Source: Gemmatimonadota bacterium
Lineage (GTDB): Bacteria; GCA-2686955
NCBI GenBank assembly: GCA_002686955.1
Contig: NYZA01000053.1
Coordinates: 1-8,809, forward strand
Length of the DNA: 8,809 nt
Direction of reading: 5' to 3'
Below the pieces are notes generated by a model that did no database searches, was not told the DNA's origin, and saw only the letters and a program-made list of their open reading frames with translations. The position numbers were made by a program, and so were the translations under genes. Positions 1 to 6,926 of this stretch are shown piece by piece (within the stretch, counting starts at the first letter, position 1; each line of letters begins with the position of its first letter).

Positions 1-1
1 C

Positions 2-115
2 TCGATCGAGTCTTCAACGCCGCTGGGCCGTTTCATGCGCTGGCAGGTCGAATTCGAGAATACGGGATCCAATCAGTGGATCTCTTTCAGCGCGGTCGCG
101 GTTGGGCGGAACTAG
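2..115 (+). CDS. C-terminal end of a small secreted beta-rich protein (5' truncated by window edge)
   Basis: The frame is open from base 2 to the TAG at 113-115, giving 37 residues that end in VAVGRN. It lines up with the end of the next gene: PLGRFMRWQVEF here against PLGRYLRWEAEF there, a shared S-x-Q about nine residues later, and a shared V-x-VGR at the extreme C-terminus. That similarity, and the short gap to the next ribosome-binding site, show that this is a real 3' end and the upstream member of a tandem paralog pair. No catalytic motif is visible. The alternating pattern suggests the last strands of a beta-sandwich. Function unknown. Confidence 0.75.
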   Translation, partial: SIESSTPLGRFMRWQVEFENTGSNQWISFSAVAVGRN

Positions 116-139
116 CCGACTCGGGAAGGAAGGCACGTC

Positions 140-592
140 ATGCGCCCAACCAGAATCGCCGTGTTCGCGATCCCGCTTCTTTCACTCTTCGCGATTTCGC
201 CGCCCGCATCGGCCGAGATCGGGCAAGGCCAGAAGGAGATCAAGATCACCCGCACCGCCGCCACCGTCGCTCAGCCGCAGGACGAGGTCTGGGAGGTGAC
301 GCCGTACACCCACGCCACGCTACAGCTCAAGGTCACCGAGCTCAGTCTCACTGGCGGCGCCAGCATTCACTTCTATCTGCAAACTTCGAACACCCTCTCC
401 GACCAGGACTGGGTGCCGATGGACACTCTGACCGTGCCCGCGGCGGCCACGATGCCGCAGTTCGATATCGTCGAGCTCTCGCTGGACAGCCCGAATCCGC
501 TGGGGCGGTACCTGCGCTGGGAGGCAGAGTTTACGCATTCGTCGAGCAGCCAGTACGCGGTGTTCTGGGTGGATTTGGTGGGGCGGAGGTGA
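140..592 (+). CDS. Small secreted beta-rich protein of unknown function, paralog of the upstream gene
   Basis: 150 residues. A purine-rich ribosome-binding site (GGAAGG, about 124-130) precedes the ATG. Residues 1-25 form a classic signal peptide: MRPTR, a hydrophobic stretch with IPLLSLFAIS, then a PPASA cleavage site. The mature part is about 125 residues, rich in alternating hydrophobic and polar positions with no long helices, consistent with a single beta-sandwich or jelly-roll exported to the periplasm or surface. It has LQTS and DQDWVPMDTL motifs and a PLGRYLRWEAEF block shared with the truncated gene just upstream. No enzyme motif or cysteine pair is seen. The stop codon lies inside the ribosome-binding site of the next gene, suggesting translational coupling. 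The family is not recognised; a carbohydrate- or surface-binding role is only a guess. Confidence 0.85.
   Translation: MRPTRIAVFAIPLLSLFAISPPASAEIGQGQKEIKITRTAATVAQPQDEVWEVTPYTHATLQLKVTELSLTGGASIHFYLQTSNTLSDQDWVPMDTLTVPAAATMPQFDIVELSLDSPNPLGRYLRWEAEFTHSSSSQYAVFWVDLVGRR
585..592 (+). promoter_or_regulatory. Extended Shine-Dalgarno GGAGGTGA overlapping a stop codon
   Basis: GGAGGTGA is an eight-base match to the anti-Shine-Dalgarno end of 16S rRNA, and its last three bases are the TGA stop of the preceding gene. The nearest in-frame starts for the beta-helix gene are GTG 589 (inside this site, so too close), GTG 604 (slightly long spacing) and TTG 643 (no site of its own). The element therefore favours GTG 604 and suggests that ribosomes ending the upstream gene help start the next. 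Confidence 0.55.
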
Positions 593-603
593 GGGGGCCA
601 CCT

Positions 604-2983
604 GTGCCCCCGGACGGTAGCGATATCACGAACGCTCTTGAGTTGGTCCGGCATCTCCTGCCAGTGCCCTTTCTTGCTATCCTGATCCCAGCCCAAGCCG
701 AAGCCGCGAATGCTCCCGCTCCCCACGACTTCTCGATACCCTACGATCCAACGACTTGGTGCATCGACCTACAAACGACGCCGACAGGTCTCTCCCCTTG
801 CGAGCAGTTCAAGAAGGACAATCCTCATCTCAACCTCCGGGTAGTCGTGCACGACGATATAGCCATTGATCCAGTCTATGGCCGGCTGCCAGGCCTTTGC
901 GGCATCAATCGCATGATGAACGACTACTACACCGGCGGTCCATGTGGAGCGTACTGGGGTGTCCCTCCGCTCGATGAGGGCGAGCCGAGGATCAAGCCCG
1001 GCGACTTCGTCTATCTCGCCGGCACAATCACCATCCAAGACAGCGGACCCGGTCTTCGCCTGCGTGTCGGCGATCCCGCCGACATGCAAACCACGTTCAG
1101 CGGAGCTGTTCCCGGGCATCGCGGCACGATCATCAACACGATAAAGAGCGAAACCGAATGGCCGGATGACTCCGGAGAGATGATCTGCATCGATCCGTAC
1201 CTGTTGTCGTCCGGTCCCGACAATACCCGCATCGAACATCTCACGCTCCAACGAACGCTCGATCCGGCGCTCACCCGCACCGACATCGAGGGCCAGGACT
1301 GCGCCAAAATGCTCTATGTCGCTGGCGTCGGCAATGACGACATCATCTACGATGACGTGACCATTATCTTCAACGGTGAGAACAACCCAGATGAGCCGCG
1401 TTACTACGGCGACGATTGCATCAAGCTGACCATGAACAACAGGAGCAATCCAAGTGCGTACGCCGAGGGAATCACGGTCATGAACAGCTACATCGAAGGC
1501 TCGCCACACTTCGAACATGGCATTGACGGCGCAGGCGGGTTCGATGACGTGACGATCGCCAACAACACATTCTACCGCACCGGCCTGACGGCTGTGTCGT
1601 TCAAAGCGGGCGCATTGGGCGCCTGCAAAGCATGGAGCATTCATGATAACTTCATATACCACTGCTACAAGGGGGTATCGGTTGGGGCTGATGGGTTCTA
1701 TCCACGCGAAATAGAAGGCGAGGACTTTCCCTTCCACGCGATTGATACCGACGTCTACAACAACATCGTCGTTATCAATCCACTTGACCCGTCTGACCCG
1801 TCACGACCGAGCTACGTACCGCCGGCGCTGAAGATCTCAGAGCCGATCTCCACCGCGATATCGGTCGAAGGCGCAAAAGACACGCGCATCTATCACAACA
1901 CGCTGATCAACGGAGGAATCCGAACCAAACACGGAAAGGCCAGGACCGGGTTCGAGGAGTTCACGAAGCCGGAGGACAGCCCCGCTTTGCACGCCCAGTG
2001 GGGACCGATCGCTCCGGAAGACGAGTGGCTCAGCAACGAAGATCTCGAGATCTACGGAAATCTGTTTCTGAATCGATTCAATCTGATTCGGGGATTGCCC
2101 CTCCATTTTGAAAGCATGATCATGTTCGCCAGCGGCATCGGAAACAACGTTAGTGACTTGGAGCGCCATCCGATCATCGAAGGTTTTCGCTGCGACTACA
2201 ACCTGTACCAGACGGGGGGGGTTGATAAGCCTGCAGGGTTCATCGATTGGAAGGACCACGAGCATCACCGTGGGGCTCGCAGTGTGGCAGACCATAGGAG
2301 ACTATCGCCCATACTACAGGGATCTGCTCTCGCACGAGCTGACGAAGACCGCTCAGACACCTTGGGTTCTCCATCGCATGCCTCCCTCGAGAACGATGAT
2401 GGATGGGTATCGCCTGGGCGCCGATCCGGAGGTGCAGAGTGTCGCCTTCAGCCCCGATCTGGCGGGCGTATTGTGGGTTCGAGAGAAAGGGGGAGACGTG
2501 ACCAAAGTGGAGCTGAGTTGGGGCTTCGGCCAGGAGCGGCGCGAGATCGATCGGCGCCGCGTGGGGGCTTACGAGGGATTGGCACTCACCGCCACTCCCG
2601 ATGCGGCCGGTGTCGTTCGAATCAGCGGCGCCTTTCCTCAGGGCTGCGTCTCCTTGGCCTGGAGCCGGGAGTACAGAGGCAGGGCACAGCGGGACGCCGG
2701 CTGTGGCGGAGTGGGACCGTGCGCCTTCGTGGACGAAGTGCCCTGGTGGGATTTCGCCGACCCGCAAGTAGCGGGTTGCCGGCAGACCGATGACGCCGGC
2801 AACGCTGAGTTGCTTTGGGCGGTGGCGGCCGGGGAGACGGTTTTCGTTCAGCTCATCGAGTGGAATCCGGGCTATCTGGGGCAGGCCAGAAAGAGCGATG
2901 TCGTTCAGGTGACGGTTGGCACGATCGACACACCGTTGGTCGATCGTAATATCGATCTGTTGTACACATTTCCGAATCGTTGA
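604..2983 (+). CDS. Secreted right-handed beta-helix protein, reading frame broken at a G8 tract
   Basis: Two consecutive frames together encode about 793 residues. The first frame runs from GTG 604 to the G tract at 2214-2221. The second continues to the TGA at 2981-2983; removing one G joins them as ...LYQTGGLISLQG... The start is uncertain: GTG 604 is best served by the upstream Shine-Dalgarno, while TTG 643 would give a shorter, cleaner signal peptide. The exported character is clear from VRHLLPVPFLAILIPAQAEA. Residues of roughly 190-530 carry parallel beta-helix coils, seen as repeated hydrophobic-N-N-x-hydrophobic turns (VTIANNTFY, SIHDNFIYH, DVYNNIVVI, RIYHNTLIN, EIYGNLFLN). Such folds usually bind or cleave polysaccharide, but no catalytic triad could be assigned. 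The last 250 residues are a separate region with several Cys and Trp (GPCAFVDEVPWWDFAD) that I do not recognise; there is no sorting tail. Base composition is less GC-extreme than in the last gene of the window. As written, the first frame would read on to a stop at 2791-2793 and give an unrelated tail. Confidence 0.75.
2214..2221 (+). repeat. Homopolymer G8 at the frame break
   Basis: Eight consecutive G within a coding region, exactly where the beta-helix reading frame must change. With seven G the protein reads through in one frame; with eight it does not. It may be a slipped-strand contingency tract, a fixed mutation, or a sequencing or assembly error. Confidence 0.8.
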
Positions 2984-3038
2984 GGTCGTCGGAGCGACCG
3001 TCGGTTCCGGCGTTGCGACTGGAAGAGAGGCTGGGCAG

Positions 3039-4682
3039 ATGAGCACCGATACACATGACCGCCAACGAGCAATTGCGCAGGGGTGCCGCCTGAAGCTCCT
3101 TGGAATGCTGGTGCCCATTTCCGCTTTGGCTGCGACTGCTGTCGCGGCGACCCTTCGCGTACCCGGCGACCAGCCTACGATTCAGGCCGGGCTCGATGCC
3201 TCCGCTGAAGGAGACACAGTGCTTGTTGCTCCGGGAACCTACACCGGTGAGGGCAATCGGGATCTCGACTTCGGTGGAGTCGATAGGGTGTTGCTCTCCG
3301 AAGCCGGGCCCGAAGCGACAGTGATCGACTGTCAGGACGATGGGAGAGGGTTTGACTTCCACTCCGGCGAGACAGTGGCATCAAGGGTGACGGGGTTTAC
3401 GGTTACTGGCGGCAACGCTCCGGGAATCGAAGGGGGTGCCGCATTTCAATGCATGGATTCTTCATCGCCCACATTGACGAAGTGTGTGGTCACCGGGAAC
3501 GTGGACGCGAGTGGCATCTACTGTAGTCGCTCGTCGCCCATTCTCATCGACTGCGCGATCGAGGGGAACTCTGGGCGCTTCTGGGGAGGGGGCTTGTTTT
3601 GCGACTACTACTCGGCCCCGATCGTGGAGAATTGCACGATCATCGGAAATGCGGCCGGTGGGCTCGCCTCCTTTCATAGCTCACCAATCATAACGAACTG
3701 CACAATAACAGACAACTACGACGCACCTAAGGGCGCCGGTGTTTACTGTCTTCGAGGTGCTCCAACGCTGATCGACTGCACGATCGCGAACAACTCCGCG
3801 GATTCCTGGGGCGGCGGAGTAGTGTGTGTCGATGGTCCCTCGACACTGATCAACTGCACGATCGTCGACAATTCGGCCGGTTTGGACGGTGGCGGTCTCT
3901 TGTGCGATTTCGGGGCGTCTCCCCACTTGATCAACTGCAACGTTTCCGGCAACTCGGCGGTGTGGGGCGGCGGTGGACTGGTCTCGTACGACACTTGCTC
4001 CATCGCATTGACCAACTGCACCATTGTGAACAACACCGGGGGCGATGGCGGAGGATTGCGCGGATGCTGCGGCTCCTCCGTGCACGCCACAAACACCATA
4101 ATATGGGGCAACAGCCCGAACCAAATCGACTACCAGGGCGGCTCCGTCTCGATCACCTACTCCAACATCCAATCCGGCTGGCCCGGCGAAGGCAACATCC
4201 ACGCCGACCCACTCTTCCTCGACCCCATCGGCGCCGACTATCACCTGCGCCCTGGCTCCCCCTGCATCGATGCCGGCACATCGTCAGGCGCTACTGGCAC
4301 CGATTTCGAAGGCGACCTCAGACCCTGGGGCGCAGGTTGGGACATCGGCGCGGATGAGTACACAGGCGTCGGAATCGAACGCTTCGAGCCACCGATCTTC
4401 GCCCCGAGGACGATGCTTGCCCCCGCCTACCCCAACCCCTTCAATCCGAGCACCACGATTCCATTCGCCCTCGCCGAAGCGGGCGGAGTGCGCCTGGCGA
4501 TCTACGATCTGAAGGGAGCGCTCGTTAGGATCCTGGTGGACGGCCCGCGCTCCGCGGGCCTGCACGCCGTGCGTTGGGACGGACGAAATCGTGTCGGCCT
4601 TGTTGTTCCAACGGGGGTCTATGTCGTGCGGTTCGAAGGGGGCGGTGCGCGGGAGGCGCGAAGGCTGGTGCTGGTCAAGTAG
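3039..4682 (+). CDS. Secreted right-handed beta-helix protein with FlgD-like / surface-sorting C-terminal tail
   Basis: 547 residues from ATG 3039, chosen because a purine-rich ribosome-binding site (GGAAGAGAGG, 3021-3030) precedes it at good spacing; the open frame extends further upstream but is not needed. Residues 1-37 are a signal peptide with hydrophobic core LLGMLVPISALAATAVA. Next comes LRVPGDQPTIQAGLDAS (residues 39-55), the standard entry motif of these proteins, followed by an EGDTVLVAPGTYTG strand. Residues about 135-360 are eight or nine helix coils of the form x-C-x(9-10)-N/D-C-T-I-x-x-N-S-A-G-G-G. A DPLFLDP / LRPGSPCIDAGT / DIGADEY closing block follows. The tail from residue 464 has YPNPFNPSTTIPF, IYDLKGALVR and PTGVYVVRFEGG, a module that in FCB bacteria marks exported or surface-anchored proteins. 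No catalytic residues are assigned. The gene starts 55 bases after the previous beta-helix gene and may be co-transcribed with it. Confidence 0.9.
   Translation: MSTDTHDRQRAIAQGCRLKLLGMLVPISALAATAVAATLRVPGDQPTIQAGLDASAEGDTVLVAPGTYTGEGNRDLDFGGVDRVLLSEAGPEATVIDCQDDGRGFDFHSGETVASRVTGFTVTGGNAPGIEGGAAFQCMDSSSPTLTKCVVTGNVDASGIYCSRSSPILIDCAIEGNSGRFWGGGLFCDYYSAPIVENCTIIGNAAGGLASFHSSPIITNCTITDNYDAPKGAGVYCLRGAPTLIDCTIANNSADSWGGGVVCVDGPSTLINCTIVDNSAGLDGGGLLCDFGASPHLINCNVSGNSAVWGGGGLVSYDTCSIALTNCTIVNNTGGDGGGLRGCCGSSVHATNTIIWGNSPNQIDYQGGSVSITYSNIQSGWPGEGNIHADPLFLDPIGADYHLRPGSPCIDAGTSSGATGTDFEGDLRPWGAGWDIGADEYTGVGIERFEPPIFAPRTMLAPAYPNPFNPSTTIPFALAEAGGVRLAIYDLKGALVRILVDGPRSAGLHAVRWDGRNRVGLVVPTGVYVVRFEGGGAREARRLVLVK
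3450..4115 (+). repeat. Beta-helix coil repeats with a double cysteine ladder
   Basis: Coding repeat of roughly 22-27 residues per coil, eight to nine copies. Most coils have a Cys just after the Gly-rich turn (FQC, IYC, LFC, VYC, VVC, LLC) and a second Cys nine or ten residues later (TKC, IDC, ENC, TNC, IDC, INC, INC, TNC). Repetition is at protein level; the DNA copies have diverged. Confidence 0.75.
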
Positions 4683-4935: not shown

Positions 4936-4967
4936 CATCAGACGATTAGACGTATATTCGTCTGATG
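4936..4967 (+). promoter_or_regulatory. Three-half-site operator-like dyad enclosing a -10-like box and the start codon
   Basis: Two tandem half-sites, ATCAGACG (4937-4944) and ATTAGACG (4945-4952), are followed by TATATT (4953-4958) and an inverted half-site CGTCTGAT (4959-4966). The outer pair is part of a perfect ten-base inverted repeat: CATCAGACGA (4936-4945) against TCGTCTGATG (4958-4967). The inner pair forms an eight-base dyad with one mismatch around TATATT. TATATT resembles a -10 box and sits seven bases before ATG 4965, so transcription could begin at or next to the start codon. No convincing -35 box and no Shine-Dalgarno are seen. Binding by the encoded winged-helix-like protein is inference. 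Confidence 0.65.
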
Positions 4968-5474
4968 CTGTACATGACGCCTTCACTGGAGGAACACCGA
5001 GACGCGCTCCGAGAGCTGGAGTCGCTCCGGCGACGGCTGGGCACGGAGGTATCGCGGCCAACTCCCTGGGCCGGCCGACTTCGTCGTGAAGCCTGCGTTG
5101 CGGCCGTGCGCAGCTATCAACCAGATCGAGCCGCTTCCGCATGGATCGAGTTCTGCATCGAGGCGCACCTGACTTTGGCCCACGAACGGCTGGAGACCCT
5201 CCACCGCGCAGCGCACCAGTGGGCCCAGATCGAGGCGCTCGTTGGAGGTCGTGGCTGGCCGGACAGGCTGGCGATCGCGCTGGAGCAGAGCCTTTTCGAC
5301 GGCGCCGACCGCGCGGCTTACTGCTCCGAGCCATCCGTCTCGCCGGCAACGGCCAGTGCGGATTTCCGCCGCATCCGCGACGCGGGCCTGGTCGAGCGGC
5401 GAGGCCGCGGGCGGTTCACGCGATATGTCGCTACCGGCAACCTGCGTGCGCAGATCTCGGAGACTGACGACTGA
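4965..5474 (+). CDS. Compact Fic-family-derived protein lacking the Fic catalytic core, with C-terminal winged helix
   Basis: 169 residues. The N-terminus MLYMTPSLEE, then LESLRRRLG and PTPWAGRLRRE (residues 1-42), resembles the start of a Fic subfamily that begins MLYxTP. Residues 50-115 (SYQPDRAASAWIEFCIEAHL onward) resemble the helical stretch that follows the Fic core, and residues 118-157 (SVSPATASADFRRI, AGLVERRGRGRFTRYV) the winged helix that ends these proteins. The middle of a normal member, including the inhibitory SNSIEGY region and the catalytic HPFxxGNGR loop, is absent: the two ends are joined in frame near residues 43-48. Length is under half that expected of a Fic protein (roughly 350-400). 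AMP transfer should be impossible, while DNA binding could remain. ATG 4965 is chosen because the family N-terminus begins there; it has no Shine-Dalgarno and lies inside the operator-like element. It is either a deletion relic that stayed open or a domesticated regulator. Family recognition is from memory of motifs, not a search. Confidence 0.65.
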   Translation: MLYMTPSLEEHRDALRELESLRRRLGTEVSRPTPWAGRLRREACVAAVRSYQPDRAASAWIEFCIEAHLTLAHERLETLHRAAHQWAQIEALVGGRGWPDRLAIALEQSLFDGADRAAYCSEPSVSPATASADFRRIRDAGLVERRGRGRFTRYVATGNLRAQISETDD

Positions 5475-5676: not shown

Positions 5677-6025
5677 TCAGAGGCCAGTGCGTCCTCCCAA
5701 ATCTCTCATTCTCGCGCGCCGGGGCGCTACGCCGGATGGCATCATGTTTCCCGTCTCGGCTTCGATGTTGAGCGCCACCGATCGCTCTCGAGCCGGGAAG
5801 AATCCGAACATCGCGCCATTCCCTTCCCTCCTAAACAGTCGTTTGATTGTCGGCGATCAGTTTCCGCTCGATCCGCGCGCCGATCCAAGCGCCCCAGATC
5901 GAGATGCCGGCGCCTTTGGCGGCGCGATTGCCGACGATCCGATTTCAACGAATCGTTGGAGAGGCCCCGGCGATGTCGATCGCGTCCTGGATCCTCGGTT
6001 GGTCCTCGGGAACGTGGAGAGTCGA
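5677..6025 (-). pseudogene. Decayed relic of a secreted beta-helix protein gene
   Basis: Read on the minus strand, positions 6025-5948 encode STLHVPEDQPRIQDAIDIA, close to the LRVPGDQPTIQAGLDAS entry motif of the intact beta-helix gene in this window. The frame meets TGA at 5945-5947. In the same frame directly beyond it come NRIVGNRAAKGAGISIWGAW and, further on, KLIADNQTT, a typical coil turn, ending at TAG 5831-5833. In another minus frame, about 5760-5677 reads ETGNMMPSGV, reminiscent of the PSGVY part of the FlgD-like tail; this last piece is weak. The order entry motif, coil, tail matches an intact protein, but nearly all coils and the signal peptide are missing and there are stops and a frameshift. 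The intact paralog shows what was lost. Not expected to make protein. Confidence 0.6.
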
Positions 6026-6061
6026 CGCTTCCGCCGACGCCGCGGACCCGAGCGCGTGCTC

Positions 6062-6193
6062 ATTCCGGTCGCTCGACTGGTCTCCATCCACGTCCGGCGC
6101 ATGGTGCCGTCTCACCGTGGGCTGCGCGAGGCGGGTCCGTCGCAAGCGGTGCCGAGCGAGACGCTGATTCGCGAGGATCGCGATGGGCGATGA
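6062..6193 (+). pseudogene. 3' remnant of a VapB/Phd-type antitoxin gene
   Basis: This frame ends ETLIREDRDGR at TGA 6191-6193, overlapping the toxin ATG (6183) by 11 bases, the arrangement expected of an antitoxin-toxin pair. Upstream it reads PVARLVSIHVRRMVPS, like the 'GRPVARLV' turn that ends the DNA-binding half of Phd/YefM-type antitoxins. Before about 6062 the similarity stops and sequence related to the minus-strand beta-helix relic begins, so the N-terminal DNA-binding half is missing. ATG 6101 could still start a 30-residue peptide containing the toxin-contacting end. The assignment rests on the C-terminal motif and the position; it could instead be a chance frame. Confidence 0.45.
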
Positions 6194-6626
6194 TGCCCGC
6201 GTCTATTTCGACACCGGCGCCCTCGCCAAGTGGTATCTCACGGAGCCCGCGTCCATCGATGTGGAGCGGTTCATCCAAGAGCGCGCGCCGGTCGAGATCA
6301 GCACCCTCACGGTCGTGGAGATGCGCTGCCTTCTCGGTCGCAGGCGACGGATGGGTGAGATCGACGGCTCACACGAGATGCGAGTCTTCTCCACCTTCGA
6401 GGAAGACATCCGCCAGGGCCATCTGATCCGGCAACCGATCGACGATGCGACGACCTTGGCGGCGGCAGGGTTGATCTCGACTCTGCCCCAGCACCCGCTA
6501 CGGTCGCTCGATGCCATTCACCTCGCCATCGCACGCGACCTCGGCGCGGGGGCGATCGCGACGGCCGACACGACCATGTCCGACGCTGCGCGGGCGATCG
6601 GCATGGAAGTGCTGTGGTTCGGTTGA
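6183..6626 (+). CDS. vapC: VapC-like PIN-domain ribonuclease toxin
   Basis: 147 residues, usual length for VapC. All four acidic residues expected of the PIN metal site are present: D10 in VYFDTGALAKWYL, E46 in LTVVEMRCLL, D110 in RSLDAIHLAIA and D129 in AIATADTTM. Related proteins are Mg- or Mn-dependent endoribonucleases that cleave tRNA, rRNA or mRNA and are held inactive by a cognate antitoxin; the target here cannot be told. The start is ATG 6183, with GAGG (6173-6176) six bases upstream. The gene overlaps the end of an antitoxin-like frame by 11 bases, but that antitoxin appears to have lost its N-terminal half. The toxin stop lies 12 bases from the broken end of a minus-strand ada fragment. 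No inactivating change is visible, so the toxin may be active, poorly expressed, or controlled in trans. Confidence 0.88.
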   Translation: MGDDARVYFDTGALAKWYLTEPASIDVERFIQERAPVEISTLTVVEMRCLLGRRRRMGEIDGSHEMRVFSTFEEDIRQGHLIRQPIDDATTLAAAGLISTLPQHPLRSLDAIHLAIARDLGAGAIATADTTMSDAARAIGMEVLWFG

Positions 6627-6638
6627 GCTGAGATCGTC

Positions 6639-6926
6639 CGCGCGACCAAGCCGTCGTGCCCGCTGATAGGCATGAAAAGTCATGCCGTGGTGGGTCTTGA
6701 ACCAGCGGCGGACGCGCGCGGGATCCAGCCCCGCCTCGCGCAGCTCCCCATCGCGCCAGCGCCGTCCGGGATCGGCCTCGATCTCTTCCAGAAGAGCGCG
6801 CAGCCAATCCGGCGCCCGCCCCGCCGTTTCGCGAGCCCACAGGTCCGCAGGTTCGGGCGGCGCGGAGCGACGGGGCGTGCCTGGATCGGTGCCACGGTGA
6901 TCGGCTAGCCAGTGCGCGGTCCCCAT
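6639..6926 (-). pseudogene. ada: Fragment of an Ada-type DNA-repair methyltransferase/regulator (AraC-like HTH part)
   Basis: From ATG 6926 on the minus strand, residues about 38-96 read APDWLRALLEEIEADPGRRW, then AGLDPARVRRWFKTHHGMTF and HAYQRARRLG. This is the linker and AraC-type helix-turn-helix of Ada proteins, which repair alkylated DNA and activate their own regulon. The zinc-binding N-domain (with its methyl-accepting cysteine) is absent upstream, and the C-terminal methyltransferase domain with the PCHR active site is absent downstream. The frame stays open to 6498, but only by running antisense through the toxin gene. Homology ends near 6639, 12 bases past the toxin stop, so the break coincides with the edge of the toxin module. 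A small HTH-only protein cannot be excluded, but truncation is more likely. Confidence 0.6.

What the first reader, a model, noticed from the sequence alone, without database searches (positions are those of the whole stretch)
4965..5474. Fic protein with its catalytic core cleanly removed but both ends kept in one frame
The ORF joins an N-terminus typical of a MLYxTP-type Fic subfamily directly to its post-core helices and C-terminal winged helix. The HPFxxGNGR AMP-transferase loop and the SNSIEGY inhibitory segment are gone, yet the frame is open for 169 codons, and the DNA-binding end sits behind an elaborate promoter dyad. This would fit a toxin/modifier gene reduced to a stand-alone autoregulator. 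A recent in-frame deletion is the simpler alternative.
Basis: partly seen in the sequence, partly recalled or inferred. Interest (0 to 1): 0.72.

Follow-up and report, generated by a model that had tools for sequence, protein, structure and literature searches.

The report
Fic defence toxin lacking catalytic core
A bacterial gene of the SoFic type (a toxin-like anti-phage enzyme) has lost its whole catalytic middle in one seamless in-frame deletion but keeps its dimer-forming front end, its DNA-binding tail and a promoter palindrome, so it may survive as a bare self-repressor, although one genome alone cannot show whether it is used or is just decaying.

Summary
ORF 4965-5474 (169 aa) is a SoFic-like class II Fic protein without its core. 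A profile of 43 full-length relatives, built without this protein, matches residues 1-49 to model 1-50 and residues 50-165 to model 242-358, with nothing between. About 191 positions are missing, including the S(N/T)xIEG inhibitory motif and HPFxDGNGR. PADLOC's SoFic model and SoFic crystal structures agree.

The autoregulator reading is plausible but unproven. Characterised relatives dimerise through helix alpha-1, and CccR represses itself by binding a palindrome with its C-terminal domain; both parts are kept here. I also find that palindromes just upstream of the start codon are enriched across this Fic subfamily (44% of genes against 8% of other genes), and this gene has one (4936-4967).

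Against it: no other short form turned up among 67 relatives or 386 genomes. The operator occurs once in the genome, so no other target is visible. The one sister-genus genome lacks the gene. A neutral deletion remnant therefore remains about as likely as a maintained repressor. Function, age and selection cannot be settled from one 84.5%-complete MAG.

The parts
4936..4967 (.). operator-like palindrome CATCAGACGATTAGAC/GTATATTCGTCTGATG reaching into the start codon (centre 13.5 nt before it)
   Evidence: the repeat finder I2, 14/16 paired; p=0.005 vs dinucleotide shuffles, and start-proximal palindromes enriched in the full-length family; only exact copy in the genome
4965..5474 (+). core-deleted Fic ORF, 169 aa
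   Evidence: AF2 model mean pLDDT 82.8
4965..5111 (+). retained N-terminus (residues 1-49): MLYMTP, helix alpha-1 (8-30; dimer helix in Sofic/CccR) and the helix that in relatives runs into the inhibitory motif (36-49)
   Evidence: HMM model 1-50, 4.6e-11; helices in model; dimer role from PMC12249575 and PMC9755527
5111..5112 (+). deletion junction: about 191 model positions (51-241) absent, incl. S(N/T)xIEG and HPFxDGNGR
   Evidence: FIC motif present in all but two of the 68 family loci from the collection scans
5112..5249 (+). post-core helices (residues 50-95), SYQPDR..WIEFC..AH
   Evidence: alignment, helix 57-95
5256..5459 (+). C-terminal winged helix (residues 98-165), recognition helix about 127-139
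   Evidence: pLDDT >90, H102-111, H127-139, E143-146, E153-156; MarR/ArsR-like and SoFic matches

Best explanation
This is a single in-frame deletion derivative of a SoFic-type (class II) Fic gene. Shown by sequence: the AMP-transferase core and its inhibitory motif are gone, while the N-terminal helix alpha-1, the post-core helices, the C-terminal winged helix and the start-codon palindrome remain in one frame. Inferred from relatives: if expressed, the protein cannot AMPylate and so should be harmless, but it may still pair through alpha-1 and bind the palindrome that overlaps its own start codon. It would then act by default as a negative autorepressor, the function that the DNA-binding tail has in the intact relative CccR. 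Whether this residual activity is kept by selection or is passively left over is undecided; I put the two at roughly even odds, slightly favouring a remnant.
For: The HMM built without the window places both ends exactly at the two ends of the full-length family, with a seamless join. PADLOC SoFic match at the C-terminal part. Of the 50 best structural rows, SoFic chains (3zcn, 3zec, 3eqx) align 160 of 169 residues, model 1..169 onto chain 13..368; the other rows cover only the winged-helix part. All but two of the 68 family loci from the two collection scans carry the FIC motif; the two exceptions are a 3' fragment and a copy with HPFSDANGR. A start-proximal palindrome is a family trait: 44% of 68 family genes at p<=0.05, against 8% of other genes in the same loci, 6% just downstream and 16% inside the genes; about half of the significant ones are centred at -17, the window's at -13.5. 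Published: CccR represses its own promoter by binding a palindrome through its C-terminal domain; CccR201-380 binds with KD 6.1 uM against 2.6 uM for the whole (PMC9755527). CccR (7xux) matches the family profile over almost its full length (that profile has the window as one of 5 rows). Sofic dimerises through alpha-1 (PMC12249575). No Fic domain elsewhere in the genome.
Against: No DNA binding, expression or dimerisation was measured. In CccR one dimer residue (K175) and in EcSofic one (D176) lie in the part that is deleted here. No sigma-70-type promoter is recognised. A regulator whose only visible target is its own gene has no obvious use: the operator has no second copy with up to 2 mismatches in the genome. 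N-terminal confidence in the model is moderate (blocks of 58-83).
Confidence: 0.6

Rival explanations
1. A decaying remnant: a neutral in-frame deletion, perhaps recent, inactivated the toxin in this strain. The open frame and the palindrome are simply not yet lost, and there is no function.
For: Short form seen in this assembly only. One deletion in three is in frame. Sequence divergence does not show acceleration after the loss: the core-intact relative L002 is as far from its nearest kin (3.37) as the window (2.86) and has lost 8 of 23 near-invariant sites against 7. The neighbourhood holds other fragments: an AraC-type HTH piece below its Pfam cut-off and a beta-helix-like piece at 5945-6145. 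No second operator target.
Against: The frame is fully open with coding-like G+C by codon position. Winged helix, alpha-1 and palindrome, the parts needed for repression, are exactly what survived, although the ends of a protein are also what any internal deletion leaves.
Confidence: 0.45
2. A maintained stand-alone repressor: after the core was lost, selection kept the DNA-binding dimer, for instance to silence a co-resident or incoming full-length relative that carries a similar operator, or as a dominant-negative partner that forms mixed dimers with it.
For: Retention of the dimer helix, the winged helix and the operator together. Autorepression and toxicity are separable in CccR (PMC9755527). 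Q71 and R78, kept in at least 95% of the core-intact relatives and also in the distant L002, are changed here (L, T), as expected if contacts with the core no longer matter.
Against: No full-length relative in this genome to silence. No second short form anywhere searched. Two changed residues are weak evidence.
Confidence: 0.35
3. An assembly or binning artefact: the metagenome assembly joined the two ends of a full-length gene.
For: The source is a fragmented genome of 270 contigs, 84.5% complete; reads are not available.
Against: No repeat at the junction that would drive a mis-join. The join is in frame and codon-exact. Both flanks align to the same family with similar divergence.
Confidence: 0.07
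4. Not a Fic derivative but an ordinary ArsR/MarR-type regulator with a chance Fic-like start.
For: The winged helix alone resembles MarR/ArsR proteins; weak NCBIfam HTH_metalloreg match (17.9 bits, cut-off 55).
Against: The N-terminal 49 residues match the Fic family start alone at 4.6e-11. The post-core WIEFC..AH segment pulled out only Fic genes or pieces of them among confirmed relatives. Only SoFic chains among the 50 listed structures cover the whole model.
Confidence: 0.02

Closest known systems
SoFic / Sofic (class II Fic; PADLOC PDLC03963; PDB 3eqx, 3zcn; EcSofic PMC12249575)
   Same: Same N-terminal helix (dimer coiled coil in EcSofic), same post-core helices and C-terminal domain, same order and register
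   Different: Lacks the inhibitory helix motif, the FIC motif and the rest of the catalytic core (about 191 positions); 169 instead of about 375 aa; cannot be an AMPylase
CccR of Yersinia pseudotuberculosis (Fic + HTH autoregulator; 7xux; PMC9755527)
   Same: Homologous architecture at both ends; palindrome in its own promoter; DNA binding resides in the C-terminal domain and needs a dimer built on alpha-1
   Different: CccR keeps the active AMPylase core; its operator has 10-bp arms 26 bp apart, here 16-bp arms with no spacer (or 10-bp arms 12 bp apart); binding here is untested
Full-length MLYxTP Fic proteins of Streptomyces and relatives (L057-L123, Embleya L021)
   Same: About 25-40% identity over the retained ends; start-proximal palindromes in many
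   Different: All core-intact (HPFxDGNGR), mostly about 370-390 aa, apart from L114 (HPFSDANGR) and the fragment L105

Membership tests
SoFic-type Fic AMPylase (class II) | FIC motif HPFx(D/E)GNGR | tested here: not met
   absent from the ORF and from the genome (PF02661: 0 matches); model positions 51-241 missing
SoFic-type Fic AMPylase (class II) | N-terminal inhibitory motif (S/T)xxxE(G/N) | tested here: not met
   sequence breaks off just before it, AAVR|SYQP
SoFic-type Fic AMPylase (class II) | N-terminal helix alpha-1 (dimer helix) | tested here: met
   HMM 1-50 match, helix 8-30 in model
SoFic-type Fic AMPylase (class II) | C-terminal winged-helix domain | tested here: met
   HMM 242-358, PADLOC SoFic 242-352; pLDDT >90
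SoFic-type Fic AMPylase (class II) | AMPylation / abortive anti-phage activity | not testable with these tools
   no active site left, so expected absent
CccR-like Fic autorepressor | palindrome in the gene's own promoter region | tested here: met
   4936-4967, p=0.005
CccR-like Fic autorepressor | binding of the palindrome by the C-terminal domain | not testable with these tools
   needs EMSA or footprint
CccR-like Fic autorepressor | dimerisation through alpha-1 / N-loop | not testable with these tools
   segment retained; some partner residues lay in the core and are lost
ArsR/SmtB metalloregulator | NCBIfam NF033788 curated score (55 bits) | tested here: not met
   17.9 bits, E 0.002

The most novel reading that the evidence does not exclude
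A Fic defence toxin reduced by one deletion to a free-standing dimeric winged-helix repressor that is kept by selection, for example as an immunity protein that silences incoming SoFic genes through shared operator architecture.
Probability: 0.3. Interest if true: 0.55.

Novelty: new variant of a known kind. Interest (0 to 1): 0.34.

Why it matters
If maintained, it would be a natural separation of a moonlighting toxin into its regulator half, and a clean test object for whether autorepression by Fic-wHTH proteins needs the catalytic core. Independently, the palindromes before many members of this Fic subfamily suggest that the autorepression shown for CccR may be common in this class II Fic/SoFic-like group, which is cheap to test.

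Tried and rejected
Pfam, NCBIfam and PDB-sequence searches with the ORF alone find nothing useful, because Pfam's Fic model covers only the deleted core.

The first profiles A1 and A2 contained the window itself; their E-values against the window are circular and are not used for the similarity claim. One search replaces them.

The long tree branch (3.21 against a median of 0.31) first looked like accelerated evolution after the deletion. Adding distant core-intact relatives removed that reading.

Loss of near-invariant sites in the post-core helices (5 of 11) against the N-terminus plus winged helix (2 of 12) is suggestive but too few to count.

L105 (167 aa, no FIC motif) looked like a second short form but is a 3' fragment without the N-terminus.

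Second operator targets in the genome: none clearly above control level.

Viral and phage collections gave no relative closer than one core-bearing, 5'-incomplete Streptomyces-type gene.

Synteny in the sister genus: not possible. A second sample of 385 genomes around another centre overlapped the first and added nothing.

The structure comparison does not exclude families it did not list.

Full report
What is there. The ORF 4965-5474 encodes 169 residues. On its own it matches no Pfam family and no PDB sequence. tblastn against plasmids finds two Streptomycetaceae places at E 6e-7 and 6e-6; read out, these are 378-380 aa Fic proteins that begin MLYATP/MLFATP and carry STHIEG and HPW(R/S)DGNGR. 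Aligned with them, the window protein has their first 50 residues, then jumps to the segment after the catalytic core and continues through the C-terminal winged helix.

Independent test. The first profiles included the query, so I rebuilt one from 43 full-length relatives without it. It gives residues 1-49 to model 1-50 and residues 50-165 to model 242-358, at 4.6e-11 and 1.8e-23 for the halves alone; 50,000 shuffles peak at 18.7 bits against 92.5. PADLOC's SoFic model, made by others, hits residues 50-157 at its positions 242-352 of 361. An AlphaFold2 model (mean pLDDT 82.8, winged helix above 90) aligns over 160 of 169 residues to SoFic crystal chains at 3.8 A, Z 8.2, whereas the other listed structures cover only the winged-helix part. 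That Z is middling by the tool's own warning, and the model was built on an alignment of Fic proteins; the coverage is the informative part.

How unusual. A scan of 84,980 genomes with a C-terminal pattern returned 67 relatives, and a viral-contig scan one more; all carry the FIC motif except a 3' fragment (L105) and one copy with HPFSDANGR (L114). The pattern scan sees only relatives with that peptide, so it is not a census. A profile search of 386 genomes found no other short form. The window's own genome has no Fic domain. The only other genome of the phylum has none of this subfamily, only a different Fic protein, and lacks the neighbouring PIN gene.

The operator. The dyad 4936-4951/4952-4967 is 14 of 16 paired, p=0.005 by shuffling. 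Applied to 68 genes of the family, the same test is significant for 44%, against 8% for other genes in the same loci, 6% just downstream and 16% inside the genes. About half of the significant dyads are centred at -17, and several reach the start codon as here. Many of these genes are from Streptomyces, so they are not independent, but the trait also appears in Acidobacteriota, Pseudomonadota and Gemmatimonadota members. In the window's genome the operator is unique: the next best have 3 mismatches, 11 sites against 7 for the reversed control pattern.

Mechanism. From the literature (read here): CccR, a Fic protein with a C-terminal HTH, represses its own promoter by binding a palindrome; its residues 201-380 suffice for binding; dimerisation through alpha-1 and the N-loop is needed for repression (PMC9755527). 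CccR matches this family's profile over most of its length. EcSofic dimerises through an alpha-1 coiled coil, and its C-terminal domain packs on the core (PMC12249575). The 169-aa protein keeps alpha-1 and the winged helix. I infer that, if expressed, it is a non-toxic dimer able to bind its own operator. Not shown: expression, dimerisation, binding, selection. K175 of CccR and D176 of EcSofic, which help the dimer, lie in the deleted part.

Remnant or repressor. The open frame (P=0.031 by chance) and the G+C by codon position (0.73/0.56/0.76) show a coding history but not when the core went. The long branch (3.21) is matched by a core-intact distant relative (L002: 3.37 from its nearest kin against 2.86 for the window; 8 against 7 of 23 near-invariant sites changed), so it says nothing about the deletion. 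Two residues kept even in L002 (Q71, R78) are changed in the window, a weak hint of relaxed contact with a missing core. The absence of any second target or second short form favours a remnant. I therefore keep both readings near even odds and score the finding as a confirmed, moderately interesting variant of a known kind.

Noticed in passing
6183-6626 (+): PIN-domain gene (PF01850, 9.4e-11) without a recognisable antitoxin partner upstream; no match in the sister-genus genome.
   Followed up: partly
6498-6926 (-): AraC-type HTH_18 fragment (28.4 bits, below the 33.6 cut-off), apparently a truncated or frameshifted Ada/AraC-like gene overlapping the PIN gene's end.
   Followed up: partly
5945-6145 (-): Short frame with LHVPEDQPRIQDAIDIA, resembling the start of the beta-helix protein at 2916-4682 (LRVPGDQPTIQAGLDA); looks like a gene remnant. 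Pfam finds nothing.
   Followed up: partly
2916-4682 (+): Right-handed beta-helix protein (PF13229, 2.7e-21) with a FlgD-Ig-like C-terminal tail; the frame 76-2793 upstream reads partly like a similar protein but has no Pfam match.
   Followed up: partly
family loci L057-L123, 70 nt before the start codons: Start-proximal palindromes are enriched across the MLYxTP Fic subfamily (44% vs 8% of other genes); in a Streptomyces group and in the window the half-sites seem to repeat with an 8-bp period (TGACTTCA TGAC; AGACGATT AGACG), which was not tested.
   Followed up: partly
L114:127-1251: Gammaproteobacterial MAG copy with HPFSDANGR and no inhibitory SNSIEG motif but an open frame: possibly another inactivated Fic that keeps its winged helix.
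   Followed up: no
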